Positions 6,361-33,364 of a DNA stretch of 64,000 nucleotides are shown piece by piece. Within the stretch, counting starts at the first letter, position 1; each line of letters opens with the position of its first letter. Origin of the DNA: Polytrichum commune (taxonomy: Eukaryota; Streptophyta; Polytrichopsida; Polytrichales; Polytrichaceae); contig OX485808.1 of the NCBI GenBank assembly GCA_950295325.1, positions 22,466,527-22,530,526 of the forward strand, in the 5' to 3' direction. The translations under genes and the position numbers were made by a program. Under the pieces are notes generated by a model. That model was not told where the DNA came from and did not search any database. It saw only the letters and a list, made by a program, of their open reading frames with translations.

Positions 6361-7212
6361 GAGACTGTACACCGCAGAAGGCACCCTCGGGCATTCAGGT
6401 AACAGACACTAAGCGGAGTGACGAAGAGGAGCGTCGCACACACAGAGGACCGCAAATTGAGCAAGTAAGAGAGAGAGAGTCCAGGAGGACCGGGGACTGA
6501 CAGTCGGGGAACTGAGGGCCCGGGCGGGAGCTGAAGGGACCGGGAGCCGGCGGGAGCGATGGAGACTGGTAGTGAGCTAGGCGGAAGCTGAGGGGACTAG
6601 GAGCTGGCATCGGGGCTTAATGGGGGAAACAACCAATAGGATGATGCCACGTTGAGAACGAGTTGGAGCCGGCGGGAACGGGAGCCCAACCGTAGGGAAT
6701 GGGCCTCAAACGGCGGGAACCGAGGACGAGACCGTTGGGGAACGGATGAAGACATTAGTAAGTTAGGTTAGAGATTAGTGAAGATGTAGTCACTTTTTGG
6801 ATGAGAGGCAAGCACTTAGTGACTTTAGGAAGTGACCACTTAGTAATTAACCAACAATGAGTGGACACGTACTTACTAACGTGTGTAGATGAAAGACAAT
6901 GCCAAGGGATTTCCATCCCTTTGATGACATTAACCGCTTTAACCATCTAAGCAATGAAAGGATGAGATCTTGGATGAATGACCCATGAATGGTAACCGCA
7001 CACACCTAGGCACATCTAGGTATTAGAAGGAATTGCAACCAATCCACTTCTCACGAACATCTATATTTAGCACGTGTGGTTTCTGTAAATAGATGCGACA
7101 TACCTAAATTTAGACTGCAGCCTTAATTCAGACTGAAATTAGCCTAATTAGACATTTGGCATTAGGGGCCACACCTAACCGCTAATTCAACCAATTATAA
7201 GATTTCAAAACC

Positions 7213-7220
7213 TATATAAA
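7213..7220 (+). promoter_or_regulatory. TATA box of the 5' LTR
   Basis: TATATAAA in the context CCTATATAAAGGGG, about 850 bp into the LTR. It would place the U3/R boundary near 7240-7250. The same sequence occurs in the 3' LTR at 31788-31795. Confidence 0.65.
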
Positions 7221-7391
7221 GGGGCACTACGGACCCCTATAGCACCTCATTATTCATTTCAACAATCCAACGTGAGCGTCAAGAAGAGCATTATCGGGAG
7301 CGTTTTAACGAAGACCTATTTGGAGCATTATCGGGAGCGATTTGAAGACAATCGGAGCTTCGCAATTTTACTCGAGGAATCGAAGATCTTT

Positions 7392-7500
7392 TCGAGCTTG
7401 AAGACTTAAAGGATTGAAATATATCCTCGAGCTTGAAGACTTAAAGGATTGAAATATATCCTCGAGCTTGAAGACTTAAAGGATTGAAATATTATCCTCG
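7392..7500 (+). repeat. 35-bp tandem repeat in the LTR (3 copies)
   Basis: Three copies of a 35-bp unit containing CGAGCTTGAAGACTTAAAGG; the last unit has a one-base change. Present identically in the 3' LTR at 31967-32075. Confidence 0.9.
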
Positions 7501-8792
7501 AACTTGAAGACGACTGAAGGCCCAAGGCTGAGGGACCACGAGGCCGCGAGGTGTGAAGACGAAGACTGAAGACTTAGCGACATTTGAAGATACTCGAAGA
7601 CGAACGCCTTCGAGTTTGAAGACCGAATTTAGACTGAGAGCCCGCGATACTGAAGGCCCGCGGACTGGAGACTGCGACTGGAGGACCGCGGAACCGGACG
7701 ACGATTTACGAGACTTGAAGATTGATTCATAACGAATCCGAAGACTTGGAGATTTGAAGATCCCTTTTGGGTGTACCTTGAAGATTGAGGGCCCGAGGTA
7801 CTGAGAGGCCACGAGACCATAGGAGCGAAGACTAAAGACCTGTGAAGTATTTGAAGACTTGATTGAAGACTTTTGAAGACCGGGAGAACATGGAAAGCTA
7901 AAGGGGCCACAAGACTGAGGGCCCATGTGACTGGAGGACCGAGAAGACTTTAGGATTTGAAGGTCTTTTCAAGAGATTACGAAATCAAGGACTACAAGAA
8001 AAGACTTGAAGACATTAAAAGTTTTCTTCAAGATTTGGAGACTGAGGGCCCTCGGGACCAGAGGACCGCAAGCCCGAGACCAAGACCGCAAGTTTGAAGC
8101 CCTTTTGAGGACTAAAGGTTTAAACGAACTTTCTAACCAAGATCTAAGATACCTTTTGGGTCTAAGGAGATGTCAAGATATCAAAAGTGAAGATGCTAAG
8201 AGATTGACAAAATCCGAAGCTCATCGTGAAGACAAAGAAGATTGCGTAAGGAATCCAAGACCGAAACACTCAAGAGAATAGGAAGATTAGAGAAGATCCT
8301 TCCTAGGAATTTAAAGATATTCAAGAATGAAGAACTAAATTCTCATGAGTAGAGAATACAAAGGAAAACCATACAAAAGGGAACTTTAGAAGAATGAAGA
8401 CATTAAGAGGATTTCAAAGCCATCATTCGAGAAAAGAAGAAATTAAAGACCATCAAGTAGTCAACTTCCACTTTGAAGGCATTGCAATGAATTGTTAAAT
8501 GAAAACTCTCAAAGTAATGTGATTGTGAACTTTGGTTGAGGATTTATAAATGAATGGAAGAATGTTGTTATTGATTACAAAAGAACACTCTCTTCATTCG
8601 TAACACTTAACCTCGACATTAGGATTTCGGGGAACATAAGCTTGAAAGCTTAGGCTACTTTCTCCTTAGAGATTTATCCAAGAGGAAACACCTTCAAAAG
8701 TTAATTTAGATAAGTGTAGTGTCCATGTAAACCGGTCAGCAGCGGGTTACACCGTCTAAGTTGTTGAGGGTTTGAAGGTGACCTCGACATTT

Positions 8793-8810
8793 TGGCGACC
8801 ATGTTGGGGA
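8793..8810 (+). promoter_or_regulatory. Primer binding site of the giant element
   Basis: TGGCGACCATGTTGGGGA begins three bases after the 5' LTR. The TGGCGAC...GGGGA form is the style of PBS I remember from Ogre/Tat-type elements (tRNA-Arg reported for some). The exact tRNA is not determined here. Confidence 0.75.
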
Positions 8811-8876
8811 TCCGCCACATGGATGTTACACTTACCTAGATTAGAAGATAAAATTTACAACATACAATATTTGGGA

Positions 8877-9688: not shown

Positions 9689-10282
9689 ATGAGAGACGCA
9701 AATGGGAAGAAACATTTGGACCACGGAAGCAAGATCGTATATATAGAGAGAACAGTGCAACGGAGACTCGAACAGTTTAATCTCCGAGGATTCTACGTGC
9801 AGGGAAGCGAAGGAGGAGAAGAAGGGAACTCAAAGCAACAAGAAGTCTTGGCTTTGGGTAAGTGGCCATGGGATTATCCAAAGTATGATACCAGCCGGGC
9901 AACTTTGAAGAAATGGGAAGGAACCAGGAGATTCCACGATCTCATGTGGGATATGCAGAAGATGTATGAAGACAAGGTCTGGCAATTACATGAAGATAGA
10001 GAAATAGGATTCACGTACCGGTCACAATTTGAAAGAGACATCGCTGAGTTACCAGAGGAGTTGCAAGCAGTAATTTTCTCTAAGGTATGGAATGACGGAA
10101 GAGAAGGAATTAGCGCCTATGTGTTAGGAGCAACGCGACATCGAGGTTACCACTACAAGCAAGAAGGTTTGTTGTACGATTTGTATGTTAGAAAGATATT
10201 CTTACCTCTGTATGGTGGTTTGCATGGTAGTGTGGGGAACTTGAATGTGGAAGAGGAAAAGGAACAAGAAACAAGAACTTAA
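9689..10282 (+). CDS. ORF1 of the giant element, upstream of gag, unknown function
   Basis: A 197-codon frame between the leader MITE and gag, in sense orientation. The protein is hydrophilic, with a Trp-rich middle (WPWDYPKYD near residue 60) and an acidic Glu-rich C-terminus. I do not recognise a domain. An extra ORF before gag is a feature of Ogre-type elements, so this may be the equivalent; that is an inference from position only. It lies 116 bp before the gag start in a different frame and has no internal stop, unlike pol. Confidence 0.55.
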   Translation: MRDANGKKHLDHGSKIVYIERTVQRRLEQFNLRGFYVQGSEGGEEGNSKQQEVLALGKWPWDYPKYDTSRATLKKWEGTRRFHDLMWDMQKMYEDKVWQLHEDREIGFTYRSQFERDIAELPEELQAVIFSKVWNDGREGISAYVLGATRHRGYHYKQEGLLYDLYVRKIFLPLYGGLHGSVGNLNVEEEKEQETRT

Positions 10283-10397: not shown

Positions 10398-12341
10398 ATG
10401 GTTGATCATGAGGATACATCTAGTACGAGAGGTACATCACCAACTCCTAGAGAACAGGAGGCAGAAAAGAAGCATGTGGAGCGCATGCATTCTAGAAAAG
10501 ACCGCATAAGGCGGATTGAACAACTCAAGAGAGAAAGAGAAGAGAGGTACGCTAGGCGTACAAGACAAAGAACGATAGGAAGTGAAGAGAGCCGATACGC
10601 TTCTGAACCACCGGCAGTAGGTTCCCACACCCCTAAGCCCAACCACCATAGAAGTCAAAGTGAAGGAGGAGGTAATGGTGAGACAAACAAAGAACATGAA
10701 GACTTAGAAGAAGAGAACTTGAATCAGGGAGAAAACGAGGAAGATGAGGATGATCTGATAATAGGTACCCCTCTTGGAACCTATGTGTTAAGAACAAAAG
10801 GTATAGGTAAAAACACGGGTACACATACCCCAGTAGATAAAGCGCAAGACAACACCCATCAAGGAAACACGGCTGAGGAAAATCTTTTCAACCCAAGGAG
10901 TTGGGAGAAATTGAAAAGAAATTTTGAAGAACAATTTAACTTTGAAGACTCCGGCTTCTCCGGAGAGAGCACACAAGATAACACGGACCAAGGAGCAAAA
11001 AGACCCATCAGTCAAGAAGAATTTGACGAACTACGAAGAAAGTTTGAAGAGAAACTTAAGCAATTCCAAAACCTTGGAATTAACACCGGAGTCAGCCCAC
11101 CACCAGCCAAGAGCAATAATCCACCCAGTGTTGGAAACAACCCATCCAATTCAGCCAACATGGTTGCACAACAACGGAGAACAAAGGTTCCCTTACCGAC
11201 CTACAAAGGTAAGACAGATCCCGACACTTACATGCAAGAATTTAACAATGTGTGTCTTGCCAACCAGGAAGACACAGATGCAATCAAGTTGCAATTATTT
11301 CCAGTCACCTTGAAGAAGCGAGCATTAGAATGGTACTCCCAATTTGGCCCAAACCATTTTCCATATTGGCCAAGTTTAGGAACTGCCTTTCTTATGAGAT
11401 TCAGATCAAAGAAATCAGAGGGAGAAGTCATTGAAAGCTTAGGCTCCCTCAAGCAAAAGAAAGACGAGACAGTTGAAGAATTTTATGAAAGGGTTATGGT
11501 GGAATCATCAAAGATTCACCCTCAGTCTAGTAATCAATTTAAGAAAGCATGGTTCCTTAATGGGTTGAAAAATGAGTATGCCAAGCACATCGATTTAATG
11601 CCAACCGATGACTTCGACGAAGCCAAAGCCTCAGCTCAGACATTGGAGCTAGGACAAATGAGAAAAGGGAGATTCCATGATGAGAGTGACAGCGATGAAT
11701 CAAGCGATGATTCTGAAGAAGAACGGAAAAAGAAGAAAAAGAAGACAAAGAGTAGAAGAAATGACTCAACCAAAGATGACATCAAGACTCTCAGAGAAGA
11801 GATAGAAGGACTGGCTTTGGGAAGCCGGAAATTCAGAACGGGCATAATTTGTCGGCGATGCCGAAATGAAGGGCACTATGTGCAAGAGTGTCAGATGAAA
11901 CAATGTACGAATTGTAACAGCTTAACCCACAACACTAGCGAGTGTGTTTACGAACGGCATGAATCTCGGAGACCCCGAGATAGAAGATATGGGGTAAATC
12001 AAATACAACCCCAAACCAATCGAAGGCCAGGAGCGATCACTCCTAGGCGAGAAACGAATGACAGAAGGGTTCGGTTTGAACCAAGGATAGAATTCAGAAG
12101 AGATGAAAGGTCCCCATTCAGGGAAAGCGATTACCGGCAGGAGGCCCCTACCGGGGAAATGAATATCGCAGAGAAGAACGGCCCTACTACAGGCCCAACA
12201 ACAACTACAGAGATGATTTTAGGAGGGAAGGTTATTACCCCTACAAAAGCCAAGATTACCAGAGGGAAGATGGATACCCCTACCGAGGAGGTCCCAGAGG
12301 ACCTATCAATCATGACAGGTATGAGTATACCAGAAGCCTGA
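10398..12341 (+). CDS. gag: Gag polyprotein of the giant element (frameshifted near its end)
   Basis: 647 codons from ATG 10398. Residues 1-260 are charged and low complexity; about 265-420 match the retrotransposon gag (capsid) domain with a W-Y-x-x-F-type core (EWYSQF). Two CCHC zinc knuckles follow: CRRCRNEGHYVQEC (485-498) and CTNCNSLTHNTSEC (503-516), preceded by a Lys-rich segment. From about residue 582 (near 12140) the frame seems shifted. The Arg/Tyr-rich sequence expected to continue is read in the +2-relative frame and joins the 12341-12877 frame, so the last ~65 residues here are probably an indel artefact. Gag packages the element RNA in cytoplasmic particles. Confidence 0.85.
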   Translation: MVDHEDTSSTRGTSPTPREQEAEKKHVERMHSRKDRIRRIEQLKREREERYARRTRQRTIGSEESRYASEPPAVGSHTPKPNHHRSQSEGGGNGETNKEHEDLEEENLNQGENEEDEDDLIIGTPLGTYVLRTKGIGKNTGTHTPVDKAQDNTHQGNTAEENLFNPRSWEKLKRNFEEQFNFEDSGFSGESTQDNTDQGAKRPISQEEFDELRRKFEEKLKQFQNLGINTGVSPPPAKSNNPPSVGNNPSNSANMVAQQRRTKVPLPTYKGKTDPDTYMQEFNNVCLANQEDTDAIKLQLFPVTLKKRALEWYSQFGPNHFPYWPSLGTAFLMRFRSKKSEGEVIESLGSLKQKKDETVEEFYERVMVESSKIHPQSSNQFKKAWFLNGLKNEYAKHIDLMPTDDFDEAKASAQTLELGQMRKGRFHDESDSDESSDDSEEERKKKKKKTKSRRNDSTKDDIKTLREEIEGLALGSRKFRTGIICRRCRNEGHYVQECQMKQCTNCNSLTHNTSECVYERHESRRPRDRRYGVNQIQPQTNRRPGAITPRRETNDRRVRFEPRIEFRRDERSPFRESDYRQEAPTGEMNIAEKNGPTTGPTTTTEMILGGKVITPTKAKITRGKMDTPTEEVPEDLSIMTGMSIPEA

Positions 12342-13024: not shown

Positions 13025-15451
13025 GTGATGAATCACACAAGAGCCAACATTTCAATAGGGCAACTACTAGAGATAGCCCCCTATTGTAGGAAACGGGTAA
13101 TGGCTGCCTTTACCAGCCAAGAAGGAACGTCCAAGAAACCGACCTCTACATACCAAGTAACAACAAAGGCATTCGATGAGGAAATGCCCATGATATCAGT
13201 AATTATAAAGAATAAACGAATACCGAACGCGTTGATCGATGGTGGATCAGGAGTGAACATCATCACAGACACATTGAGGAAGAAATTAGGACTCAAGAAG
13301 ATAGAGCCCGCACCATTTACCATTAAGATGGTTGACCAGAGGAAGGTCATGCCCAAAGGAATCATCCGGGATGTACGCCTTGATGTGGGCGGAATCATAA
13401 TCCGGACGACACTCACCGTCATTGACATGGTGAGCACTGAAGACAGTTACTCCTTGTTACTAGGAAGACCTTGGTTGAAAGAGGCTCAAGCACAACATGA
13501 TTGGCCCCTCAACAAATTGACCTTAACGCAAGGGGGAAACAAGGTAGAGATAAGCACCCAAAGAACGCCGGCCCTACCACCGGCCAAAAGACCCCTAAAT
13601 TGGGAAGACTACGATTGGGAAATGGGATTGTCCGATGAAGAAGAAGCGATAGTCTATGAAGCCTTCCCAGAACTTCTACCCATGGGGAACTTTGATTTGA
13701 AAAGCTTGAGGAAGCTAAGAGAACCAAGCTGCAACACAGTGAAGATTGATACCCACCACGAACCAGGAAAACTTGGAGCACGGAAAAGAGAAACCGAGAA
13801 ACCTCGGTCAAGAAAAGAAACGAAGAAAGAACAAGAAGCTATGGAGGAGAAACCGGTATATCCCTCCCAGTTTTACAAGGCAAAAGAAGAAGAGATAGAG
13901 ATTGATCGCACCCCTGCCTCAGAAGCCGTTAAAGGGAAGAAGATAGCAGGGTGGACAGTTGAAGATGAAAACTTGGTGAAGAATTTAAACTTAGGAACTC
14001 CAGAGGAGCCTAAGTTAGTCAAAATCGCGAAAGACTTGGGAGAATACGAAGCAAAGGTGAAAGAGGTACTCCTAAAATTCAAGGATGTGTTTGCTTTCAC
14101 GTATAAAGATATGAAGGGCATACCCCCTCATGTGTGCGAGCATAAGATTGAACTACAGTCGGAAGCCAAGCCGGTACGACAAATGCGTTATAGGATGAAT
14201 CCTAATTACGCAGCCAAGGTAAAAGAAGAGATCGACAAGTACTTGGAAGCGGGATTCATATATCCCGTTGATAAAACAGAATGGCTATCACCGATCGTGA
14301 TTGTGCCAAAGAAGAATGGGAAACTACGAGTGTGCGTCGACTACCGCAAACTCAACGCAGTCACCAAGGTAGATCCTTTTCCTCTACCTTTTACGGAGTC
14401 GATTTTGGAAGCCGTTGCAGGCCATGAAATGTACACATTGATGGACGGGTACAACGGCTACAACCAAATCATGATCGCCTTAGAAGATCAATTGAAGACT
14501 TCTTTCATTACCGAGTACGGAGTGTTCGCGTACAGGGTGATGCCCTTTGGATTAATGTGTGCACCAGCTACCTTCCAAAGGGGCATGATGAAGATATTTG
14601 CTGACTACCTCGACAAATTCATGAAGGTGTTTTTAGATGATTTTACAATTTACGGAACCAAGGAAGACCACATTGAGCATTTGGAAAAATGTCTCATCAA
14701 ATGCCGCGAAAATGGAGTCAGCCTGAATCCGGAGAAATGTTTCTTCTGTGTCAACTCAGGGAGACTCCTAGGGCACGTGGTATGCAAAGAAGGGTTATTA
14801 GTGGACCCGAAAAAGGTGGGAGTCATAAACGGATTACCCCCACCAACCACGGTACGAGGGACCCGCAGTTTCCTAGGACAAGCTACATACCATCGAAAAT
14901 TCATATGGATGTACGCTGAGATCACTCGGCCTTTGTACTTATTACTCAAGAAAGGAGAAAAGTACATTTGGACAAAATCTTATCAAGAGGCCTTCGAAGA
15001 AGTGAAGAAAGTGTTAACAACTACACCCATTTTGGTAACTCCCAATTGGACCATGGAATTCCACGTACACTGCGATGCCTTGAACATCGCGATTGGAGCC
15101 GTTTTGGCTCAGAACATACACGGGGATAGAGATTCCCCAATTCATTACGCTAGTCGACTCCTAAACAATGCGGAGAAGAACTATAGTACGACGGAGCGTG
15201 AAGCCCTAGCAATGATCTACTCAATGGGCAAATTCAGACACTATTTGCTAGCAAACCATTTCGTATTCTACGTGGATCATCAAGCCCTACTATACTTGGT
15301 CGATCGACCAGTGGTGTCCGGGCGAATCGCGAGATGGATGCTGTTACTTCAAGAGTACGATTTTGAAGTAGTTTATAAGCCTGGTAGGAGCCATGTAATG
15401 GCTGACCACCTATCAAGGATAGAAAGCGGAGAAGATCCCTCAGGGGTATAA
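13025..15451 (+). CDS. pol: Pol: aspartic protease, reverse transcriptase, RNase H
   Basis: 808 codons without interruption. The protease active site is IDGGSG (71-76), with LLGRPW at 145-150. RT spans about 390-590: catalytic Asp 474 in LMDGYNGYNQ, RVMPFGL, and the FLDD box at 536-539. RNase H spans about 675-800 with acidic residues D684 (HCDAL), E726 (TEREALA), D751 (YVDHQ) and D794 (MADHLSR). Between PR and RT lies a long charged spacer (about 180-330). It ends at TAA 15449-15451, followed by TAG 15455-15457 in the same frame. The frame then reopens into the HHCC array, so both stops look like secondary damage. RT copies the element RNA into DNA and RNase H removes the RNA strand. Confidence 0.92.
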   Translation: MMNHTRANISIGQLLEIAPYCRKRVMAAFTSQEGTSKKPTSTYQVTTKAFDEEMPMISVIIKNKRIPNALIDGGSGVNIITDTLRKKLGLKKIEPAPFTIKMVDQRKVMPKGIIRDVRLDVGGIIIRTTLTVIDMVSTEDSYSLLLGRPWLKEAQAQHDWPLNKLTLTQGGNKVEISTQRTPALPPAKRPLNWEDYDWEMGLSDEEEAIVYEAFPELLPMGNFDLKSLRKLREPSCNTVKIDTHHEPGKLGARKRETEKPRSRKETKKEQEAMEEKPVYPSQFYKAKEEEIEIDRTPASEAVKGKKIAGWTVEDENLVKNLNLGTPEEPKLVKIAKDLGEYEAKVKEVLLKFKDVFAFTYKDMKGIPPHVCEHKIELQSEAKPVRQMRYRMNPNYAAKVKEEIDKYLEAGFIYPVDKTEWLSPIVIVPKKNGKLRVCVDYRKLNAVTKVDPFPLPFTESILEAVAGHEMYTLMDGYNGYNQIMIALEDQLKTSFITEYGVFAYRVMPFGLMCAPATFQRGMMKIFADYLDKFMKVFLDDFTIYGTKEDHIEHLEKCLIKCRENGVSLNPEKCFFCVNSGRLLGHVVCKEGLLVDPKKVGVINGLPPPTTVRGTRSFLGQATYHRKFIWMYAEITRPLYLLLKKGEKYIWTKSYQEAFEEVKKVLTTTPILVTPNWTMEFHVHCDALNIAIGAVLAQNIHGDRDSPIHYASRLLNNAEKNYSTTEREALAMIYSMGKFRHYLLANHFVFYVDHQALLYLVDRPVVSGRIARWMLLLQEYDFEVVYKPGRSHVMADHLSRIESGEDPSGV

Positions 15452-15478
15452 GACTAGTTTCCGGACGCAAGTTTATTC

Positions 15479-16291
15479 ATGGTTCACGTGCAACCATTCG
15501 AAGACTGGCGAGCACCTTTCATTGAGTACCTTACTCACGGAAGATTGTTGTCAGCTCTAGCTACCCCACGAGAACAAAACAAGATCAGGCAACTGAGTGA
15601 GCCATTCGTCCTAGACGACGAAAAACTCAAGCGAGTCAGTATCTCCGGCAAGATACATGAGTGTATAGCCGGGGACATCATTGAAGAAGTCATAAGCGAA
15701 GCCCATGAGCAAGATGGGATACACTACAATCTAACTTCAACATGGCATTACATACTATGCACCCCATATTGGTGGCCTACTCGACGAAGAGATGTACTGG
15801 AATACTGTCAACAATGTCTGGTATGTAAGGTTGCTGACCAAGGAAACGAAACCGGGAACATTACCCCACAAGATTCAGAGGATGACGACGATCCACTCCC
15901 TGTACAACCTTTGGAAGCGCAAGAAGACATGACAGGAAAAATAGAATCGGATTGGACAACACCATATGTCCAACACATGACATGTCTAACACATGGAACC
16001 CCCTGGGTGAGTTCCCTACCCAAAGAAGAGAGAAAATTGGTAGTGTACCGAAGCCATTTCTTCATACTCATTGAAGGAGAGTTACACCGCATGTTTCATA
16101 ACGGCATGACAAAGAAATGTATGCCTGGAAGGTATGTGAGGAGTTACATCAAGACCCTCCATATACGAGAAAATCGGCATCTCCCCGTAAGCGCCACCAG
16201 GGAATTGGTTCTAAAAGGCCCTTATTGGTGGCCAACTATAGCGGAAGACATCTCACTACTCATCACACTATGCACCGAGTGTGAAGAATGA
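15479..16291 (+). CDS. Pol segment with HHCC modules 1 and 2
   Basis: 270 codons in the same frame as PR-RT-RH. It contains two consecutive copies of the unit that normally occurs once before the integrase core: a DW..P....YLTHG head, a central beta-rich stretch, then a His-His...YWWPT...Cys-Cys zinc-binding domain. An acidic linker (DSEDDDD) separates them. It ends at TGA 16289-16291. The ATG at 15479 is probably internal to the original polyprotein. Confidence 0.85.
   Translation: MVHVQPFEDWRAPFIEYLTHGRLLSALATPREQNKIRQLSEPFVLDDEKLKRVSISGKIHECIAGDIIEEVISEAHEQDGIHYNLTSTWHYILCTPYWWPTRRRDVLEYCQQCLVCKVADQGNETGNITPQDSEDDDDPLPVQPLEAQEDMTGKIESDWTTPYVQHMTCLTHGTPWVSSLPKEERKLVVYRSHFFILIEGELHRMFHNGMTKKCMPGRYVRSYIKTLHIRENRHLPVSATRELVLKGPYWWPTIAEDISLLITLCTECEE
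15503..15829 (+). other. HHCC module 1
   Basis: Head DWRAPFIEYLTHGR. Zinc ligands are H at codon 15704, a second H six codons on (H-x5-H), YWWPT, and CLVC ending at 15829. An additional Cys lies three residues before the CxxC pair, as in module 8. Confidence 0.85.
15950..16282 (+). other. HHCC module 2
   Basis: Head DWTTPYVQHMTCLTHG. H-x5-H begins at codon 16160, then GPYWWPT and CTEC. It starts 447 bp after module 1. Confidence 0.85.
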
Positions 16292-16300
16292 GGAGAAGAG

Positions 16301-16713
16301 TTGCCAACAGAAGCAAGCTCTTCGGAACCTGGTAACGGGACGGACATTATACCATACAAAGAAACCTTCAACGATTGGACAACGCCTCTAGTCGAATATC
16401 TGGCGCATGGAAGATTCAAAATGGACATGGAGACCCAAAGAGGGCAGAGGGAAACCATACGAGAGAGCGAAATTTTCACTTTGGAAAAGGTAAACTTCGA
16501 AAACTGGAGAAGAATGGAATGGCTAAAATTTGCATCGCTGGTTACCAAATAAAGCATTGGATAGGGAAAATGCACGTACACCAGCAGAGACACTTAGACG
16601 ACCAACAAACTTGGCTTCGATGCTCGCAAGGGAATCGGTGGTGGCCCACGATGGGGCTGTGTGACATACAAATCTACATTATGTACGATTGCCCGTCTTG
16701 TCGAAGATTTTGA
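16301..16713 (+). pseudogene. Pol segment with HHCC module 3 (frameshifted)
   Basis: Module 3 runs 16373-16701. The first half (head DWTTPLVEYLAHGR) is in the pol frame used so far. Near 16487 the homology moves to the next frame, where H-x5-H begins at codon 16573, followed by RWWPT and CPSC. A one-base indel in an A-rich stretch explains this. All four zinc ligands survive. TGA ends the second frame at 16711-16713. Confidence 0.8.
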
Positions 16714-16770
16714 GGCCCGCTCCATAACATAATTTGCGGGTCCGTCATCATACAAGCTCATGACAACAAG

Positions 16771-17100
16771 GATTGGAGGAAATTACTTATAGAATACCTC
16801 ACATATGGATACTTGAAAGGGCCCCGCATCTCGAAAAATCAATACAAGAAAATAATTCGGCAAAGCCGAAAATATTTCATTGAAGAAGGGAAACTAAAAT
16901 GAATCTTGGCGAATGGAGATATTAAGATATGTATTGTGGGACGTGAGATCAACGAGTACCTGCAGGAACTACATGTTACTGAATCCGGGCAACATCTTAG
17001 CGAAGAGACAATGTGGCACCTAGTCATGTTTGGACCATATTGGTGGCCCACATGCGGAGCTGACATTAACGGCTTATGCCGTCGGAAATGTACGGTATGC
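16771..17100 (+). other. HHCC module 4
   Basis: Head DWRKLLIEYLTYG. H-x6-H begins at codon 16972, then GPYWWPT and CTVC. TGA at 16900-16902 interrupts it. Confidence 0.85.
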
Positions 17101-17181
17101 AACAACCAAGCAGAATTTTCAAAGGACCAGCAAACACCATCACCTGTGGACCGGAAAGACCTACCAAGAGAGATTGCTGCA

Positions 17182-17508
17182 GATTGGAGACGCCCTTACA
17201 TGGAGTACCTAACATGCAAGGAAATCTTCGACCAAACTTTACCACCAGAGGTAAAAAGGGCAGTAACACAAAGCCATAAGTATTTTATGTTCACCAACGA
17301 CACTTTGCAACGGATACGCAAAGGAGGGAAAAGTAATCAAGTTTGTATGCCCGAGACTCAAGTTTCCAGATACCTAGCCAAGGTACATGGGGAAAGCGGA
17401 CCCCACTTGGCCGCCATAGAAACATGGAAGGCCGTGGCCACGGGGATGTACTGGTGGCCAATATGGGGAAACGACGTGTGCAACCATTTAAGAGATTGCA
17501 AAATCTGC
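17182..17508 (+). other. HHCC module 5
   Basis: Head DWRRPYMEYLT. H-x5-H begins at codon 17386, then MYWWPI and CKIC. No interruption. Confidence 0.85.
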
Positions 17509-17583
17509 AGAATAACAAAGACCCGGGGTAAGTACCCCGAGGAAAGTCAGAGTTCAACCCCACCAAAACAAACGCTGGAGCCC

Positions 17584-17907
17584 GATTGGAGACAACCGAT
17601 CACACAACGGCTAAGGAACTTTGAGGAGTTGAACCACGTTAGCACACATGACGATTTGGGATTACTCAGCCTCAACACCGAGACGTATTTCATAGCCGAA
17701 GATGGGTTGAAATATCGATTACCAAATGGGGAAGTTAAGATGTGCGTGGCCAAAGAAGACGCCAAAGATTGGGTGAAGAGGATACATGAATATCAAATAC
17801 CGCATCTAACGAGACAAGAAGTACTCACACAAGTACACATAGGCCCGTAGTGGTGGCCCACCATTTCTTCAGATGTAAACCACTTAATTGACGAATGTAA
17901 ATCATGT
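17584..17907 (+). other. HHCC module 6
   Basis: Head DWRQPITQRLRN. H-x5-H begins at codon 17785. TAG replaces the Tyr before WWPT at 17848-17850, then CKSC with Cys codons at 17896 and 17905. Confidence 0.85.
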
Positions 17908-17979
17908 CAGATCACTGCAACGTCAAGCCTCAAAATCGAGAACTATGGGGCCATCCTCTTCCAGAATCAGAAGACACGT

Positions 17980-18303
17980 GATTGGAGAGAACCAATCCTT
18001 CAACACCTCAAAAATCCCATGGAACTAAGCAACTTTGCTTTCCATGAGGAATTGGGTACATTACGGGCAGAAGTGCCCCGTTATTTCCTAGAAGAGGAAA
18101 AGTTAAAGCGAGACTTTGCAAGTGGACAAGTAAAATTATGTATCTCTCAAGAAGAAGGAATTGAATGGTTATCCACCATTCACCATCAAAGGTACCCTCA
18201 CCTCTCAATGGATGAGATGGTTTTGCAGGTCAACCTAGGACCTTATTGGTGGCCCACAATACCACCGGACATTGACCACATGTGCAAGGGATGTCGGATT
18301 TGT
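17980..18303 (+). other. HHCC module 7
   Basis: Head DWREPILQHLKN. H-x5-H begins at codon 18181, then GPYWWPT and CRIC. No interruption. Confidence 0.85.
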
Positions 18304-19656
18304 TGGCCTCATAAATTTTCGAAGCTTATGGTTGATTGCAAGACTGTCACCATTAACGAAAAGGAAGAACCGGATTGGAGAGCACCTTTCATCGATTACT
18401 TAACACACGGGAGGTTGACTACGGAAGCCTCAACCACGCAGCGTCAACAAATTGCTATACGAAGTCGTCCGTACATGCTGAACCACAACGGGACTTTACT
18501 AAAAGAAGGTCCCGATGGTATCCGGAGAATATGCGTAGTTGGACCGATAACTACGGCCATTATTGCAGAAGCTCATGAAGGAATAGCTGGAGGGCACTTT
18601 TCAGCCAACATCACACTACATAAGGTGTTAACTGCCTTGTATTGGTGGCCCTCCATGAAGAAAGATGTCCATCTTTATTGCACTCAATGCGATATCTGCC
18701 AAAGGGTTGGCCCAAAAATCTCAACCAATCTCCAACCCTTACATCCCACAATGCCCACGGAGGTATTTCAGAAATGGGGTTTGGATTTCATTGGACCGGT
18801 CAACCCGCCAGCCAAAGATACCAAGAATCGGTACATTATCACGGCTACGGACTACACCACCAAATGGGTGGAAGCCAGAGCTTTAAAAGATAGCACGGCT
18901 AAATCTACGGCCAAGTTCCTTTTCGAAGAGAAAAAAACAAAATTTGGATGCCCATTGGAAATTGTGAGCGACCAAGGAAGTCACTTTATCAATGACACTA
19001 TTAAGGTGCTCACTCAAGAATTTATGATTTTACACCGGAAATCAACCACTTACTACCCACAAGCCAACGGCCAAGCGGAAAGTACCAACAAGGTAATTAA
19101 GATTGCCTTAACCAAAATGGTGAACGCCAATCGAACTGATTGGGACACCAAGTTACACACAACACTTTGGGCCTATAGGACAGCCTATAAGGTCACGACC
19201 AAACACTCTCCATTTTCATTAGTATTCGGGACGGAAGCCTTGTTACCTATGGCATACCTCCATCCCGACGTTTATCACAAGAGGAGTCAAGAGATTCACC
19301 CCATCCTTGAAAAGAGGATGGAACAACTCAAGGTAATGGATCTCACTCGACACGAAGCTGAGGAGAACATGAAACACATGCAGTTGTTACGAAAGGAAAG
19401 GCATGACAAGCCAAAGGTGAGGACACCATATAAGCAGCATGGTCACGGGATAACCAAGCTCCCACAAAAGGGGCCCAACAACCACAGTACCATACAAGCG
19501 AGGGAGGTCATCCAAGCCTCCTCCAAAAATAAAGGGGCGGAACAAATCCTACACCCAAGACCCGATTTTACCCCGGCCAACAAATCCTATGGCACTTACG
19601 CCATAAAATACCTGGGCCGGGCAAGTTCAAAATACGATGGGCAGGACCTTACCTAA
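17980..19656 (+). CDS. Pol segment with HHCC modules 7 and 8 and the integrase catalytic core
   Basis: Open from the DW head of module 7 through the integrase core. Module 8 is the canonical integrase N-terminal zinc domain: H-x6-H, YWWPS, then CTQCDICQR. The rve core has its catalytic triad at D 18784 (GLDFIGP), D 18970 (VSDQGSH) and E 19078 (GQAEST), giving D-x61-D-x35-E, the canonical D,D35E spacing. After about 19420 the frame loses similarity, and the true C-terminus is read in another frame (19623-19817). Integrase joins the cDNA ends to host DNA. Confidence 0.9.
   Translation, partial: DWREPILQHLKNPMELSNFAFHEELGTLRAEVPRYFLEEEKLKRDFASGQVKLCISQEEGIEWLSTIHHQRYPHLSMDEMVLQVNLGPYWWPTIPPDIDHMCKGCRICWPHKFSKLMVDCKTVTINEKEEPDWRAPFIDYLTHGRLTTEASTTQRQQIAIRSRPYMLNHNGTLLKEGPDGIRRICVVGPITTAIIAEAHEGIAGGHFSANITLHKVLTALYWWPSMKKDVHLYCTQCDICQRVGPKISTNLQPLHPTMPTEVFQKWGLDFIGPVNPPAKDTKNRYIITATDYTTKWVEARALKDSTAKSTAKFLFEEKKTKFGCPLEIVSDQGSHFINDTIKVLTQEFMILHRKSTTYYPQANGQAESTNKVIKIALTKMVNANRTDWDTKLHTTLWAYRTAYKVTTKHSPFSLVFGTEALLPMAYLHPDVYHKRSQEIHPILEKRMEQLKVMDLTRHEAEENMKHMQLLRKERHDKPKVRTPYKQHGHGITKLPQKGPNNHSTIQAREVIQASSKNKGAEQILHPRPDFTPANKSYGTYAIKYLGRASSKYDGQDLT
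18373..18699 (+). other. HHCC module 8 (canonical integrase zinc domain)
   Basis: Head DWRAPFIDYLTHGR, nearly identical to module 1. H-x6-H begins at codon 18574 (EAHEGIAGGHFS), then LYWWPS and CDIC, directly followed by the integrase core. This is the copy found in ordinary elements. Confidence 0.92.
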
Positions 19657-21138: not shown

Positions 21139-22570
21139 GCTTTGGCTTTTGATTATCCCCTCCTTCACTCTTCCGTCACTAGAGTCCTCCATTTTCTCCC
21201 TCGGCCTAACCTCCTTTGTCTCGCCACCGCGGATGTCCTCCACCTTCTCCATTAGTAATCCAAATGATTTATTCTGACCAATAGGTTCAAGTGTTGAAAA
21301 ACACTTTTATCAATGGTTCAAGTACCAAATACATTTAAAAGTCACACTGTGAGCCCAAAAGGGTGCCCACATTTAGTCTTAGACCCTTGAAACGTTAGTT
21401 GATGCACTTTGAAGTAGCATGTTACTTCACAAAAATATAAAAAGAGTGAAATGTTAGTCTTAGAAGTACCATGTTGTAAGAGGCTAGGATGTGAGTTGTT
21501 ATTGTGTTTTTACCTTCGGAAGGATTTGAGTGAATGAGGATAGGTAAGGAGAACTTGGATTGAGTAGTTAGTAAGTAGGCTAGTACAAATGGATGGAGAC
21601 AACCAAAGTGACTCAAGAGGCAAGTGCATTCGAATTGGGATGAATGGAGGATCACATGGAGCGCACAAGTGGACCACCTCATCATGGCCACTTAATGGGG
21701 AAGGCCCAAGGAAGAATGCAAGGTGGAGGATAAGCAAATTCTCAAAGCACCAATCAAATCACGAGTTAAGCATCGTGGTTTGAATTAAGTGGTGAGCGAC
21801 GATTTGGGAAAGTAAGGGGAGAAAGTTATGGCGGCGGAAAGCGAAGGAGGCTAAGTTTGGGTTGAAGCATCCCAAGTTTGGTAAAGTGTGGTAGGTAGAA
21901 AGCCAAGGCTAGTTAAATGTTCGAATTAGGATCCTTGTTGATCATTTGAGGGAGGAAGGCTTAGAAGATAGGATTGGCGCCTACTAAGTAGGAGGAAATC
22001 TCAAGGGCTTATCGTGAGCCTTGAGGGTGCTCACCCCCTCAAGCTTACTATATAATCCCTCATTCTTCCCTCACTCATCCTCTCTTTCCTTTGTGCTCCA
22101 AGGCACCCCACGAGTTATAAGTGTGGGTGTGGGAAGCCATATTGGAGCACATGTGTGTGCTTAGTTTTTAGTTTGAGAGCCAAGGCTTGTTAGCCTTGAA
22201 GAGGGCTTGACCTCTTGGTAGAATTAGTGTTGACGTGAAGGATTTTAAAGTTAATTCATGATTCCAATTTGTGGTACTTAAAGTTCATGTTTTGAATACA
22301 CGTGGTTGCAAGTTCCATGTTTAAGAGTTGAGCACTTGATGTTGTGATGAGTGCAAAAATATACTTGTGTGGATTAGTTAGTCTTAGTGAAGTTAGGAAA
22401 TTCTCTCTCCCCCTCTCCTCTCTAGGATTTTAGGATTTTAGGATTAGAGAAGAATTGTGTGATTAGAAAGGGGTTGTTAGTAGAATTAGGGAAATTAGGT
22501 AGGAAGATTAGTTAAGGGCTTGAATAATTAGTGAGGTAGTTGGGGATTACAACTACAAAGTTGTGGGTTT

Positions 22571-22675
22571 ATGAAGGAGCTGGGTTTGTTTAGTTAGAAA
22601 GTAAAGAGCTGGGTTTATGAAGGAGCTAGGTTTATGTAATTAGAAAATAAAGAGATGGGTTCATGAAGGAGCTTA
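22571..22675 (+). repeat. 46-bp tandem repeat in LTR A
   Basis: ATGAAGGAGCT recurs at 22571, 22617 and 22663, with the intervening GGGTTT...TTAGAAA.TAAAGAG conserved (about 2.3 copies). It differs from the minisatellite in C. Confidence 0.75.
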
Positions 22676-26506: not shown

Positions 26507-26511
26507 CCAGC

Positions 26512-26610
26512 TGACCCTCGGCTCAGCAACAGCCTGTATGTAGCAACCGGCTTAACCAGCTGACCCTCGGCCAGCAGTAGCTTGTATGTAGCAACCGGCT
26601 TAACCAACTG
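26512..26610 (+). repeat. Minisatellite remainder beyond LTR B
   Basis: Two more units of the 23521-24246 array, resuming directly after the duplicated CCAGC. Confidence 0.9.
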
Positions 26611-28175: not shown

Positions 28176-30908
28176 TTGCACACGGAGGAACCAACCCTTA
28201 CACCACGCGCAGCAGTTGTCCCAGGAGCACCCGAATTGAGGAAGTTAGAGAAACTACCCGATTGTTCAGTAAGAGCTAACAGGGAAGCCGAGATGGAGAG
28301 TTTATATGAGATTAGACCACAGCTGGATGAGCAGGGAACATTCTGGAGAAACTTGCAAACCAAGTGTTTACAAGGTTTTACCTCGGTCCGCTGGAGCACA
28401 AGTGAGTCCCAGTGGTATCCTTTGTTGTGCAAATTTCACACTTACCAGGACTTGTTGTGTAAAGCGGTGATCAACAGCAAGGAGTCAGATTTTACAGAAA
28501 TGAAGAGAAGACAAGGAGAGGAGGAGCTGGGGCGTTACATTTTTGTGGTTGATACGGTCCTTAGGAACCAACAGTTTACTTTGGAAGAAGTGCAGTTCCT
28601 CAAACAGATCAATCTGGAAGGCTTTGTGACCAGGATTACATGGGGAGTGTTGCATGAGGTTCTGGTTCGGGAGGCCTTGACAAATCTCCAAGAACAGACC
28701 ATGACAACAACTGTACAAGGCAAGGAATTTCCCTTATTGGAGCCGGACTGGAGAACACAGATGCGAGAGACATTCGAGCTTACAACCCGGCTAGTGCCCT
28801 CAACCAAGCAATGGGAGCTATCAGAGTTGTTTCCATCACTCAAAACAATAGCTGCCGGACAAGTGATGGTGGAAGTGACTGATTGCACATATCCAGGTGC
28901 AAAGAAACCCCTCAGAATCCTGAGTTCTTTATTTTGTTTAAACATAGCTGGTCAGAACCTCATTTCCATATCGTTTGCCGAATTGATCCTCGCAGCCCTG
29001 AACGGCCAGGCAGTAGACTGGCCTGAGGAATTTTATCCAGAACTTCGGGAGGAAGTTATCAAACTCCATCAAAAACATTCACAGACTATGGTAAAGGTGG
29101 TAAGGACCACCATCGGCCCTCATCTCACCCTCATGATCAAGGTTGCGGGGGTAATGAATTTACAGCACGAGATCGAAGCAGGTTTTCGAGTGGCTAAACC
29201 TTTCTGCACTCCCAACCCGAGCATCCAGCCCAAGAGAAGAAGGTGTACGAAACCATCAATCCCACCACCAACCCTACATACCACCGTAAGAGTTGTACCA
29301 CCCGAGGCAGATCAGAAGGGGGCTTCCCCATCGGCACCCCCACTAGCTTCGGAAACTCCTCATTCAATAGTGGTCGAGACGGAAGAACCATGGCAGACTC
29401 CAGAGGCCATACCCAACATCATAGAACAGGTGAAGCAAGTGCACAGGAGGTTGGAAAATTTACTCACAACCCTCGCAAGCAAAGCACCACCAGAATTACT
29501 GAGAACACTGAATTCTCAGTTTTACAGAATCCAGCGCCAAACCATTTTGCAAGAAGACACACATCCAGCAGACACCACCAACACATTGAGAACAGAGGTT
29601 CTTAAATCTCAGAGTGTTCAGTTGGAAAGGCTGGGGGAAAGGTTGGCCGAAACAGAGGAACTCAATCAGATTTACATTGAATACTCTTTCGAAATGGAAG
29701 AGGAAGTGGCAAGACTGAAAATCGAAGCCCAGTCCCTCACCCAAAAGGATCAGGAGAATCTGGCCAAGTTTCAAAGTCTGGAAGAAATTCATTCCCAACA
29801 GTCAGAAGCCAAGGACAAGTTAGTGGCAACCCTGCAATACTAGATTCGCAAACTCAAGGAGGAGGCAACTGCCTGCAACAAGAGGGCGAAAGAGTCGCAT
29901 AAGATCCGACAACATGATAGGGAGGAGCTCGGCAGGTTGCGCACCGAGAATGAGGCGTTACGAGCAACCAAGGTAGGGAAAGAATCAACTTACAACCGCA
30001 AAAGTGATCCAGAATCCAGTCAGGCCTCCAAACGGCCAATAGATAGAACAGAGCGCCAAGCATTGGCCACGGGTGCAGCGGAGCAATTACTGAGTGACTT
30101 ACAACACGAGTTACACATGAGTAAGCATGAAAAATAGGAGCTGCAACATCAGCTTCAGAACGGAACTACACCCGGACAGATGGGAATACCACTGTCCCAT
30201 ATCCACCCAAAGGCGGAAGTTTACCACCAATTGTTAGAGCACACCGAACCCCTACAAACGGTGATGCAGTATTACCAAGCCTATTGGGCAATCGACCTCC
30301 TCACTAGCAACTTACCCTTACCCAAGAAGGGTGTTACATTCAATCTAAAGCAATTTCAGGAGTTATGGGAGCACGCGAACCCAAAGGCGAGAGACACCTT
30401 AGCCTTCATGTGGATGCGAAGCGATTTCAAGCTATCTCTGGGCACCATCGAAGTGGTAACAGGATCACCGCCATTTTACATCCGAAGGTACATTCTCCGA
30501 AGTATAGCTTGGTTAGCACAACATAAAGCAATCCAAGCCAAGGGACGCATCATGAATCAGATCTTACCCAACCTGCGTCCTTACACCCACAGTCAGAAAA
30601 TGGAGATCACCCGACTCCAGTACAAAAACGAGGCGATCTTCCAACAGGCTACCGATAACCTGCGAAGAGAAGACACCACGATTTGTTTCGAGGCCGTGAG
30701 ACGCCACCAATGGCTACTGGAGCACCACCTAGAACACTCGACGAAAGTAACCCTTCCGCAACTGAAGGAGTATGTGACTCAAACCTTAGAGGAGCAACAG
30801 CTGACTACCAGCAAGGGCCAGTTTGGCACCATCAACCATGGCACAATTCTTCGGATCCAGACATCAGAACGCACCAGTTACAATCCTCAGGATAGTCATG
30901 AAGCATGA
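28176..30908 (+). pseudogene. Accessory ORF between pol and 3' LTR, long coiled-coil protein
   Basis: One frame of about 910 codons, interrupted only by TAG 29841-29843 and TAG 30135-30137; both sit in Gln/Lys-rich coiled coil, so CAG to TAG or AAG to TAG changes are plausible. Residues about 50-340 form a globular region with a moderately hydrophobic segment (ILSSLFCLNIAG); 340-420 are Pro/Thr-rich; about 470-650 are heptad-rich coiled coil (ERLAETEELNQIYIEYS, MEEEVARLKIE, LRTENEALRA). The last ~240 codons form a second globular part. Athila/Tat elements often carry an ORF here, but I recognise neither an envelope signature nor any other family. Confidence 0.6.
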
Positions 30909-30940: not shown

Positions 30941-33364
30941 TGTACACCGCAGAAGGCACCCTCGGGCATTCAGGTAACAGACACTAAGCGGAGTGACGAA
31001 GAGGAGCGTCGCACACACAGAGGACCGCAAATTGAGCAAGTAAGAGAGAGAGAGTCCAGGAGGACCGGGGACTGACAGTCGGGGAACTGAGGGCCCGGGC
31101 GGGAGCTGAAGGGACCGGGAGCCGGCGGGAGCGATGGAGACTGGTAGTGAGCTAGGCGGAAGCTGAGGGGACTAGGAGCTGGCATCGGGGCTTAATGGGG
31201 GAAACAACCAATAGGATGATGCCACGTTGAGAACGAGTTGGAGCCGGCGGGAACGGGAGCCCAACCGTAGGGAATGGGCCTCAAACGGCGGGAACCGAGG
31301 ACGAGACCGTTGGGGAACGGATGAAGACATTAGTAAGTTAGGTTAGAGATTAGTGAAGATGTAGTCACTTTTTGGATGAGAGGCAAGCACTTAGTGACTT
31401 TAGGAAGTGACCACTTAGTAATTAACCAACAATGAGTGGACACGTACTTACTAACGTGTGTAGATGAAAGACAATGCCAAGGGATTTCCATCCCTTTGAT
31501 GACATTAACCGCTTTAACCATCTAAGCAATGAAAGGATGAGATCTTGGATGAATGACCCATGAATGGTAACCGCACACACCTAGGCACATCTAGGTATTA
31601 GAAGGAATTGCAACCAATCCACTTCTCACGAACATCTATATTTAGCACGTGTGGTTTCTGTAAATAGATGCGACATACCTAAATTTAGACTGCAGCCTTA
31701 ATTCAGACTGAAATTAGCCTAATTAGACATTTGGCATTAGGGGCCACACCTAACCGCTAATTCAACCAATTATAAGATTTCAAAACCTATATAAAGGGGC
31801 ACTACGGACCCCTATAGCACCTCATTATTCATTTCAACAATCCAACGTGAGCGTCAAGAAGAGCATTATCGGGAGCGTTTTAACGAAGACCTATTTGGAG
31901 CATTATCGGGAGCGATTTGAAGACAATCGGAGCTTCGCAATTTTACTCGAGGAATCGAAGATCTTTTCGAGCTTGAAGACTTAAAGGATTGAAATATATC
32001 CTCGAGCTTGAAGACTTAAAGGATTGAAATATATCCTCGAGCTTGAAGACTTAAAGGATTGAAATATTATCCTCGAACTTGAAGACGACTGAAGGCCCAA
32101 GGCTGAGGGACCACGAGGCCGCGAGGTGTGAAGACGAAGACTGAAGACTTAGCGACATTTGAAGATACTCGAAGACGAACGCCTTCGAGTTTGAAGACCG
32201 AATTTAGACTGAGAGCCCGCGATACTGAAGGCCCGCGGACTGGAGACTGCGACTGGAGGACCGCGGAACCGGACGACGATTTACGAGACTTGAAGATTGA
32301 TTCATAACGAATCCGAAGACTTGGAGATTTGAAGATCCCTTTTGGGTGTACCTTGAAGATTGAGGGCCCGAGGTACTGAGAGGCCACGAGACCATAGGAG
32401 CGAAGACTAAAGACCTGTGAAGTATTTGAAGACTTGATTGAAGACTTTTGAAGACCGGGAGAACATGGAAAGCTAAAGGGGCCACAAGACTGAGGGCCCA
32501 TGTGACTGGAGGACCGAGAAGACTTTAGGATTTGAAGGTCTTTTCAAGAGATTACGAAATCAAGGACTACAAGAAAAGACTTGAAGACATTAAAAGTTTT
32601 CTTCAAGATTTGGAGACTGAGGGCCCTCGGGACCAGAGGACCGCAAGCCCGAGACCAAGACCGCAAGTTTGAAGCCCTTTTGAGGACTAAAGGTTTAAAC
32701 GAACTTTCTAACCAAGATCTAAGATACCTTTTGGGTCTAAGGAGATGTCAAGATATCAAAAGTGAAGATGCTAAGAGATTGACAAAATCCGAAGCTCATC
32801 GTGAAGACAAAGAAGATTGCGTAAGGAATCCAAGACCGAAACACTCAAGAGAATAGGAAGATTAGAGAAGATCCTTCCTAGGAATTTAAAGATATTCAAG
32901 AATGAAGAACTAAATTCTCATGAGTAGAGAATACAAAGGAAAACCATACAAAAGGGAACTTTAGAAGAATGAAGACATTAAGAGGATTTCAAAGCCATCA
33001 TTCGAGAAAAGAAGAAATTAAAGACCATCAAGTAGTCAACTTCCACTTTGAAGGCATTGCAATGAATTGTTAAATGAAAACTCTCAAAGTAATGTGATTG
33101 TGAACTTTGGTTGAGGATTTATAAATGAATGGAAGAATGTTGTTATTGATTACAAAAGAACACTCTCTTCATTCGTAACACTTAACCTCGACATTAGGAT
33201 TTCGGGGAACATAAGCTTGAAAGCTTAGGCTACTTTCTCCTTAGAGATTTATCCAAGAGGAAACACCTTCAAAAGTTAATTTAGATAAGTGTAGTGTCCA
33301 TGTAAACCGGTCAGCAGCGGGTTACACCGTCTAAGTTGTTGAGGGTTTGAAGGTGACCTCGACA
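30941..33364 (+). repeat. 3' LTR of the giant element
   Basis: 2424 bp, identical in length and, as far as I compared, in sequence to 6366-8789, including the TATA box (31788-31795) and the 35-bp repeat. It is followed by GAGAC. Confidence 0.97.

What the first reader, a model, noticed from the sequence alone, without database searches (positions are those of the whole stretch)
15503..18699. Eightfold tandem array of integrase HHCC zinc-binding modules in a retrotransposon Pol
Between RNase H and the integrase core, the ~110-residue unit that normally occurs once occurs eight times. Module starts are 15503, 15950, 16373, 16771, 17182, 17584, 17980 and 18373, a period of 393-447 bp. Every module keeps the DW...head, H-x5/6-H, a (Y)WWP motif and C-x2-C. 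The modules are highly diverged otherwise, so the duplications are old and the zinc ligands appear to have been maintained. Modules 1 and 8 have the most similar heads. A poly-zinc-finger Pol could alter integrase oligomerisation, RNA/cDNA binding or target choice; this is speculation. I know of no described element with this architecture (Tat elements are known for an extra RNase H instead).
Basis: partly seen in the sequence, partly recalled or inferred. Interest (0 to 1): 0.92.

Follow-up and report, generated by a model that had tools for sequence, protein, structure and literature searches.

The report
Retrotransposon with eight integrase zinc modules
A very large plant retrotransposon carries eight copies of the small zinc-binding unit that normally occurs once at the start of its DNA-inserting enzyme, and related elements keep the same row of copies in open, conserved reading frames.

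Summary
Confirmed, and stronger than first described. The window holds a 26,999-bp LTR retrotransposon (6366-33364; LTRs identical over 2424 bp, 5-bp target duplication). Between RNase H and the integrase core lie eight diverged copies of the integrase N-terminal unit (extension plus HHCC zinc domain). A profile from one- and two-module elements detects all eight; 10 shuffled windows give no hit. In the PDB only foamy-virus and Ty3 integrases match. Relatives keep the array open; one (787 aa) has seven modules, the outer two partial, in one frame. Modules group by array position in a tree, so the array predates the copies. Zinc ligands are kept in 190 of 200 cells of M1-M7. The window copy is broken (six in-frame stops, one frameshift) yet has identical LTRs, so it was probably moved in trans. 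Two-module elements, some from the fern Adiantum, look like an independent duplication. Function is unproven; my best guess is a multivalent integrase/cDNA-binding arm. No DNA of relatives was available, so no dN/dS; structure predictions were unusable.

The parts
6366..8789 (+). 5' LTR, 2424 bp, TG...CA, flanked by target duplication GAGAC
   Evidence: 100% identical to 30941-33364; same 5 bp outside both LTRs
8790..8815 (+). primer-binding-site-like sequence starting TTTTGGCGACC directly after the 5' LTR
   Evidence: read from sequence; not matched to a tRNA
9689..10282 (+). extra ORF upstream of gag, 197 aa, no Pfam match at E 0.01
10398..12341 (+). gag ORF (Retrotrans_gag, zinc knuckle)
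   Evidence: Pfam PF03732 7e-9, PF13696 5e-4 (the latter under its curated cut-off)
13025..15451 (+). protease-RT-RNase H ORF, 808 aa; RT about 14303-14779, RNase H about 15050-15358
   Evidence: Pfam RVT_1 2e-27, RT_RNaseH 1e-32, Asp_protease_2 0.0015 (the last under its curated cut-off)
15503..15844 (+). module M1 (NED-NTD unit of integrase)
   Evidence: Pfam 4e-9; one/two-module profile 2e-16
15950..16288 (+). module M2
   Evidence: Pfam 4e-5; one/two-module profile 9e-12
16373..16707 (+). module M3, split by a frame change near 16500 in this copy
   Evidence: relatives' M3 profile 3e-19 and 5e-48 on the two pieces
16771..17124 (+). module M4, with one in-frame stop at 16900
   Evidence: relatives' M4 profile 7e-21 and 1e-39 on the two pieces
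17182..17529 (+). module M5
   Evidence: Pfam 2e-6; relatives' M5 profile 8e-67
17584..17925 (+). module M6, with one in-frame stop at 17848
   Evidence: relatives' M6 profile 6e-47 and 2e-8 on the two pieces
17980..18333 (+). module M7
   Evidence: Pfam 9e-4; relatives' M7 profile 3e-67
18373..18729 (+). module M8, the canonical integrase N-terminal unit directly before the core
   Evidence: Pfam 1e-15; one/two-module profile 2e-33
18757..19059 (+). integrase catalytic core (rve)
   Evidence: Pfam PF00665 8e-10
28176..29843 (+). ORF downstream of pol, 555 aa, no Pfam match at E 0.01
30180..30908 (+). ORF downstream of pol, 242 aa, no Pfam match at E 0.01
30941..33364 (+). 3' LTR, 2424 bp, preceded by a purine-rich tract

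Best explanation
This is a Ty3/gypsy-type LTR retrotransposon family whose Pol has gained seven extra copies of the integrase's own N-terminal unit (an N-terminal extension of the NED type plus the HHCC zinc domain) between RNase H and the integrase proper. SHOWN: the eight modules; their kinship to integrase N-terminal units; the same positional array, open in overlapping pieces, in relatives; ligand upkeep; and a window copy that is broken yet has identical LTRs. INFERRED: in working copies the array is translated as part of Pol and folds as zinc-bound beads in front of the integrase core. Because the single unit in related integrases helps hold integrase on the element's DNA ends and on partner subunits (the latter recalled), I think the row most likely works as a multivalent binding arm. 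It would raise the integrase's grip on, or assembly around, a very long (about 27 kb) cDNA or RNA, with diverged modules sharing or specialising the contacts. The window copy probably moved using Pol from intact copies.
For: Modules match integrase N-terminal units: Pfam; in the PDB a profile of five window modules matches, up to E 1, only six sequences: five integrases of the foamy-virus kind (best 6e-7; one is labelled just 'integrase') and Ty3 (2e-4); without M8 the foamy-virus match stays at 4e-5, Ty3 falls to 0.06. Open arrays in relatives: P0139 has M1 (part) to M7 (part) in 787 aa; P0143 the end of RNase H, M1, M2, M3 and part of M4; P0140 M4-M8-core; P0002 M3 (part)-M8-core. Modules group by position: M2, M3, M4, M5, M7 each one clade at 99-100 bootstrap (SH-aLRT 85-100), M6 94/98, M1 86/58. 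Ligands kept in 190 of 200 cells of 50 M1-M7 modules (summed). Drift simulation: at 66-75% protein identity a mean of 3.9-7.0 stops per 247-314 codons; zero stops in 5 of 360 runs. [quoted passage not shown]
Against: No function was tested. Ligands can be lost: in M6 of P0003 and P0140 the second His and second Cys are both gone while the frame stays open, so not every module must bind zinc in every copy. Two-module and one-module relatives manage without the array. The relatives are predicted ORFs, a set that favours open stretches, and no single protein covers all eight modules. The window copy has six stops and a frameshift in this stretch. M8 is not recovered as one clade across the two array families, though one clade is not rejected (AU p 0.33). 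Both structure models were poor (mean pLDDT 33 and 45) and the fold search on the M5 model found nothing significant. No DNA of relatives, so no dN/dS.
Confidence: 0.5

Rival explanations
1. Neutral ratchet: the unit was duplicated by template switching or unequal exchange and the copies are kept only because a Pol polyprotein must stay in frame, fold and be cut properly. The beads are tolerated linkers with no added task.
For: Duplication of the same unit seems to have happened at least twice (first modules of two-module elements group with their own second modules, 95/93 branch; AU p 0.016 against one origin, a test named after seeing the tree). Zinc ligands lost together in M6 of P0003 and P0140 without loss of the frame. 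Relatives P0011 and P0015 lack M8 and the core (read; in the profile scan neither has an M8 match).
Against: Modules only 21-39% identical to each other in the window copy keep the same 12 signature columns and 190 of 200 ligand cells; a mere linker should shed zinc sites more often. Order is the same in the overlapping relatives read here.
Confidence: 0.25
2. Host-factor tether: the extra modules dock on chromatin or transcription factors and steer target choice, standing in for the chromodomain that other lineages carry.
For: No chromodomain was found by Pfam in window 18358-19653 nor among the precomputed domains listed for P0001 and P0018. [quoted passage not shown] Modules are diverged from one another but steady within position.
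Confidence: 0.2
3. The array is a relic or assembly artefact of this one copy.
For: Six stops and a frameshift in the stretch from RNase H to M6 of the window copy.
Against: The same modules in the same order, open, in proteins from other samples at 54-91% identity to the matching window pieces; modules within the window copy are only 21-39% identical, so this is not an assembly repeat.
Confidence: 0.02

Closest known systems
Integrase N-terminal unit of Ty3 (7q5b) and prototype foamy virus integrase (3l2q, 3oyi and others)
   Same: The only solved chains matched by the module profile up to E 1; H-H, YWWP and C-x2-C line up.
   Different: They carry one unit per integrase (recalled; one matched stretch each); here there are eight.
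Two-module Ty3/gypsy elements of the fern Adiantum nelumboides (P0092, P0099, P0129) and of unnamed ENA samples (P0053, P0060, P0076, P0128)
   Same: Two integrase N-terminal units in tandem, 126-129 residues apart, behind RNase H and, where the protein is long enough, before the core.
   Different: Only two units; their first unit groups with their own second unit and not with M1-M7, so probably an independent event.
Ogre and Retand (Tat lineage) elements
   Same: Large plant Ty3/gypsy elements with extra ORFs and something added between RH and INT (PMC6317226 passages; PMC11963269 abstract start and passages).
   Different: What they carry between RH and INT is an extra RNase H (aRH); none was found by Pfam in the window ORFs scanned.
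Ordinary one-module Ty3/gypsy Pol of liverworts (Calypogeia P0049, Marchantia P0083, P0096) and of Tanacetum
   Same: Homologous RT-RNase H-integrase; RNase H region 61% (Calypogeia), 55-56% (Marchantia) and 37-51% (Tanacetum rows) identical.
   Different: One integrase zinc module in the liverwort proteins named; three Tanacetum proteins have two matches, but far apart.

Membership tests
Ty3/gypsy (Metaviridae) LTR retrotransposon | Pol order protease-RT-RNase H-integrase | tested here: met
   Pfam order on the + strand, 13025-19653; the protease match is weak
Ty3/gypsy (Metaviridae) LTR retrotransposon | Long terminal repeats TG...CA with short target duplication | tested here: met
   2424-bp identical LTRs, GAGAC on both sides
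Tat lineage (Ogre, Retand, TatI-III) | Second RNase H of archaeal type (aRH) | tested here: not met
   No such Pfam match in the ORFs and module pieces scanned; sequence outside those ORFs was not scanned
Chromovirus | Chromodomain after the integrase core | tested here: inconclusive
   None in window 18358-19653 or among precomputed domains of P0001 and P0018; window sequence behind the stop at 19654 was not scanned
Athila lineage | Place in the RT tree beside named Athila elements | not tested
   No named lineage references in the sequence sets used; the RT-RH tree has only host names
Integrase zinc-binding domain (Pfam PF17921) | Sequence match and H-H-C-C ligands in each module | tested here: met
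   Six of eight modules by Pfam in this copy, three of them under its cut-off; eight of eight by profile; ligands in 190 of 200 cells of 50 M1-M7 modules
Integrase zinc-binding domain (Pfam PF17921) | Helical zinc fold of the integrase N-terminal domain | tested here: inconclusive
   Models at mean pLDDT 33 and 45; fold search without a significant match
Integrase zinc-binding domain (Pfam PF17921) | Zinc actually bound | not testable with these tools
   needs purified protein

The most novel reading that the evidence does not exclude
Integrases are not limited to one N-terminal zinc unit: some plant retrotransposons built and kept a poly-NTD integrase, with position-specific modules that work together as a multivalent assembly or targeting arm for an unusually long genome, and such arrays arose more than once.
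Probability: 0.4. Interest if true: 0.85.

Novelty: new variant of a known kind. Interest (0 to 1): 0.75.

Why it matters
The N-terminal zinc unit helps decide how integrase subunits and DNA ends come together, and every integrase I know of (recalled) has one. A family with eight, kept in order over long divergence, gives a natural experiment on what that unit does, on how large an intasome can become, and on how retroelements with genomes near 27 kb handle their cDNA. It also shows that Pol can grow by repeating one of its own domains and not only by capturing foreign ones such as aRH or chromodomains.

Tried and rejected
Rejected: local assembly or tandem-repeat artefact (modules 21-39% identical to each other, the same array in relatives). 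Rejected: chance motif matches (10 shuffled windows gave no hit for the one/two-module profile; four of the eight positional profiles gave one marginal shuffled hit each, at 0.025-0.096; outside the array the real window gave the other gypsy element near 45 kb and one marginal hit at 22919-23020, 0.022). Rejected: two-hit Tanacetum proteins P0028, P0038, P0040 as further arrays; their two matches are about 160-530 residues apart and look like predictions that span two elements.

Led nowhere: structure prediction of P0139 (pLDDT 33) and of window M5 (pLDDT 45); Foldseek search with the M5 model (no E under 0.001; the model is too poor to mean anything). Scans of viral contigs with P0001, A1 and P0076 and of genome contigs with A1 gave no relative, so no DNA for dN/dS. 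The whole-genome search for PF17921 did not complete (11 tries). The host could not be named: the neighbouring PAL-like gene has a GT-AG intron, but one paper search gave nothing decisive (listing only). There were ten paper searches, two of them with no paper listed; none of the titles or abstract starts shown describes a multi-module integrase, and the full papers were not checked for it. Of papers I saw passages of PMC6317226, PMC8632968 and PMC11963269, nothing else.

Choices that affect counts: the second protein search listed only the best 120 of 3329 hits. Modules were extracted only if matched nearly from end to end (130), and 88 of these went into the IQ-TREE tree (near copies and most single modules dropped by hand). 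Position groups for the ligand table were taken from the FastTree tree; the broken window modules M3, M4 and M6 are not in that table, and the three extra modules of P0009 (all four ligands present) are not in the 200 cells. The AU test was named after seeing the tree. The three P0009 modules sit on long branches and are not placed.
Full report
WHAT IS THERE. The finding lies inside a structurally complete LTR retrotransposon at 6366-33364 (26,999 bp). The two 2424-bp LTRs are identical and are flanked by the same five bases, GAGAC. On the + strand, in order: an ORF without Pfam match (9689-10282), gag (10398-12341), protease-RT-RNase H (13025-15451), the array (15503-18729), the integrase core (18757-19059) and, far downstream, two ORFs without Pfam match (28176-29843, 30180-30908) before the 3' LTR.

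THE EIGHT MODULES. Each is about 110-120 residues: a DW head, a stretch in the place of the N-terminal extension (NED) of Ty3 and foamy-virus integrase, then H-x5/6-H, (Y)WWP and C-x2-C. Pfam Integrase_H2C2 matches M1, M2, M4, M5, M7 and M8 of this copy with E 1e-15 to 9e-4 (M2, M4 and M7 under the curated cut-off); the pieces of M3 and the first part of M6, broken in this copy, give no match. To test kinship without circularity I built a profile from 25 modules of one- and two-module relatives only. It detects all eight window modules (weakest: the first piece of M4 at 0.037, the two pieces of M6 at 0.016 and 0.0013, M3 at 5e-4) and also the single module of the other gypsy element at 44963-45121, with no hit in 10 shuffled windows. 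A profile of the five unbroken window modules matches, in the whole PDB up to E 1, only integrases of the foamy-virus kind (6e-7) and Ty3 integrase (2e-4); without M8 it still matches foamy-virus integrase (4e-5), Ty3 only at 0.06. Identity between the five modules is 21-39%, M1-M8 highest. Twelve columns have the same majority letter in M1-M7 and in window M8: D1, W2, L42, C54, H68, H75, W91, W92, P93, D98, C106, C109 in M8 numbering. C54 is not one of the four classical ligands.

RELATIVES KEEP THE ARRAY. Three protein searches brought 143 proteins; the second listed only the best 120 of 3329. A module profile finds two or more modules in 29 of 143; 3 of these 29 (Tanacetum) have their matches far apart and are not tandem. 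P0139 (787 aa) runs from the end of M1 through M2-M6 into M7 in one open frame; P0143 from the end of RNase H through M1-M3 into M4; P0033 RNase H-M1-M2-M3; P0141 M2-M5 and P0142 M2 into M5; P0002, P0003, P0140 and P0001 from M3, M4, M4 and M5 through M8 into the start of the core or beyond. P0019 runs from protease through RNase H into M1 without interruption. Identity of these relatives to the matching window pieces is 54-91%. Neutral drift of window pieces to 66-75% protein identity gives a mean of 3.9-7.0 stops per 247-314 codons, with zero stops in 5 of 360 runs; at 85-94% identity zero stops are more common (65 of 360). A 787-codon open frame at 63-79% identity is therefore hard to reconcile with drift, although gene-calling favours open pieces.

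AGE AND ORDER. In a maximum-likelihood tree of 88 modules (of 130 extracted) modules group by position in the array, not by copy: M2, M3, M4, M5 and M7 are each one clade at 99-100 bootstrap, M6 94/98, M1 86/58; M6 and M7 are sisters (100/100). All extra modules, including those of the more distant P0009, fall on one side of a 100/100 branch, and M8 falls on the other side with the ordinary single modules. M8 of the two array families is not recovered as one clade, but one clade is not rejected (AU p 0.33). The root is not inferred; from its place beside the core and its company in the tree I take M8 as the original unit and M1-M7 as derived. The array predates the split of the copies. P0009 (50-55% identical, at least four modules) and P0023 (M1-like) appear to belong to one or more sister families that already had extra modules; the exact correspondence is unresolved (long branches).

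A SECOND, SMALLER CASE. Seven proteins have two modules 126-129 residues apart: P0092, P0099 and P0129 from the fern Adiantum nelumboides, and P0053, P0060, P0076, P0128 without a name. Their first module groups with their own second module (95/93), and a tree forcing all extra modules of both kinds together is rejected (AU p 0.016; the test was chosen after seeing the tree). In an RT-RNase H tree two- and eight-module elements lie in separate clades within a 21-row clade; lineages with one detected module (P0082, P0124, P0125, P0126, P0136) fall on the eight-module side, on weak support (87/75). Independent duplication is likely, not proven.

LIGANDS. Over 50 M1-M7 modules in relatives and window (unbroken ones only), the four ligand columns hold the right residue in 190 of 200 cells (H 46, H 48, C 49, C 47 of 50 each; two of the ten misses are gaps), and M8 in 50 of 52 (summed). 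In M6 of P0003 and P0140 the second His and second Cys are both lost (P0140 also the first His) while WWP and the frame remain: five of the eight residue changes in M1-M7. This suggests that zinc sites tend to be kept or lost as units, and that a zinc-free module can be tolerated.

THIS COPY IS DEFECTIVE BUT YOUNG. It has in-frame stops at 15449, 15455, 16289, 16711, 16900 and 17848, and a frame change within M3; relatives open over these stretches exist. With 0 differences over 2424 bp the 95% upper limit (rule of three, my arithmetic) is about 0.0006 substitutions per site per LTR since insertion, about two substitutions over the array. Six stops are very unlikely to have arisen since then, so the RNA that was copied was probably already broken and the enzymes came from elsewhere (inference; LTR gene conversion is the alternative). 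P0011 and P0015 are other likely non-autonomous relatives: they pass from M7 straight to the region behind the core.

HOW IT MAY WORK. Shown: architecture, kinship, order, upkeep. Inferred: translation and folding of the array in working copies. [quoted passage not shown] I therefore favour a multivalent binding arm for cDNA/RNA or integrase assembly (about 0.5), above a neutral ratchet (0.25) and host-factor targeting (0.2). The 27-kb length of the element fits the first but does not prove it.

KNOWN OR NEW. [quoted passage not shown] the words 'zinc' and 'HHCC' do not occur in its main text, and the passages I saw mention no repeated integrase domain. In the listings of ten paper searches no title or abstract start describes a multi-module integrase; subscription papers and preprints were not covered. 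I class it as a new variant of a known kind.

Noticed in passing
21348-26506: Inverted repeats of about 529 bp (88% identical) enclose the sequence between them (5.2 kb end to end) in the 3' part of the retrotransposon, probably a nested element; it holds a minisatellite (23538-24248, 48/95-bp units) of which a further piece lies just outside at 26506-26610.
   Followed up: partly
P0003 and P0140, module M6: Second His and second Cys of the zinc site are lost together while the reading frame and WWP motif remain.
   Followed up: partly
P0011, P0015: Relatives that run from M7 directly to the region behind the integrase core, lacking M8 and the core: likely non-autonomous deletion derivatives, or chimeric assemblies.
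   Followed up: no
window modules, M8 column 54: A cysteine about 14 residues before the first ligand histidine is the majority letter in M1-M7 and present in M8, though not a classical HHCC ligand.
   Followed up: no
9689-10282, 28176-29843, 30180-30908: Three ORFs of the retrotransposon outside gag-pol without a Pfam match at E 0.01.
   Followed up: no
1-1065 and 2415-3470: Near-perfect inverted repeat (98%) with a 1.35-kb centre at the window start.
   Followed up: no
40198-46883: A second Ty3/gypsy element with 365-bp LTRs (98.9% identical) and an ordinary single integrase zinc module near 44951-45121.
   Followed up: partly
54508-56847: Phenylalanine ammonia-lyase-like gene of the plant host, recognised by eye; its first exon matches Pfam Lyase_aromatic at 1e-5, under the curated cut-off, and a GT-AG intron follows the codons for GVTT(G). 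The second exon was not scanned (one search failed), and the host could not be named.
   Followed up: partly
62038-64000: Several inverted repeats (84-91%) at the window end.
   Followed up: no
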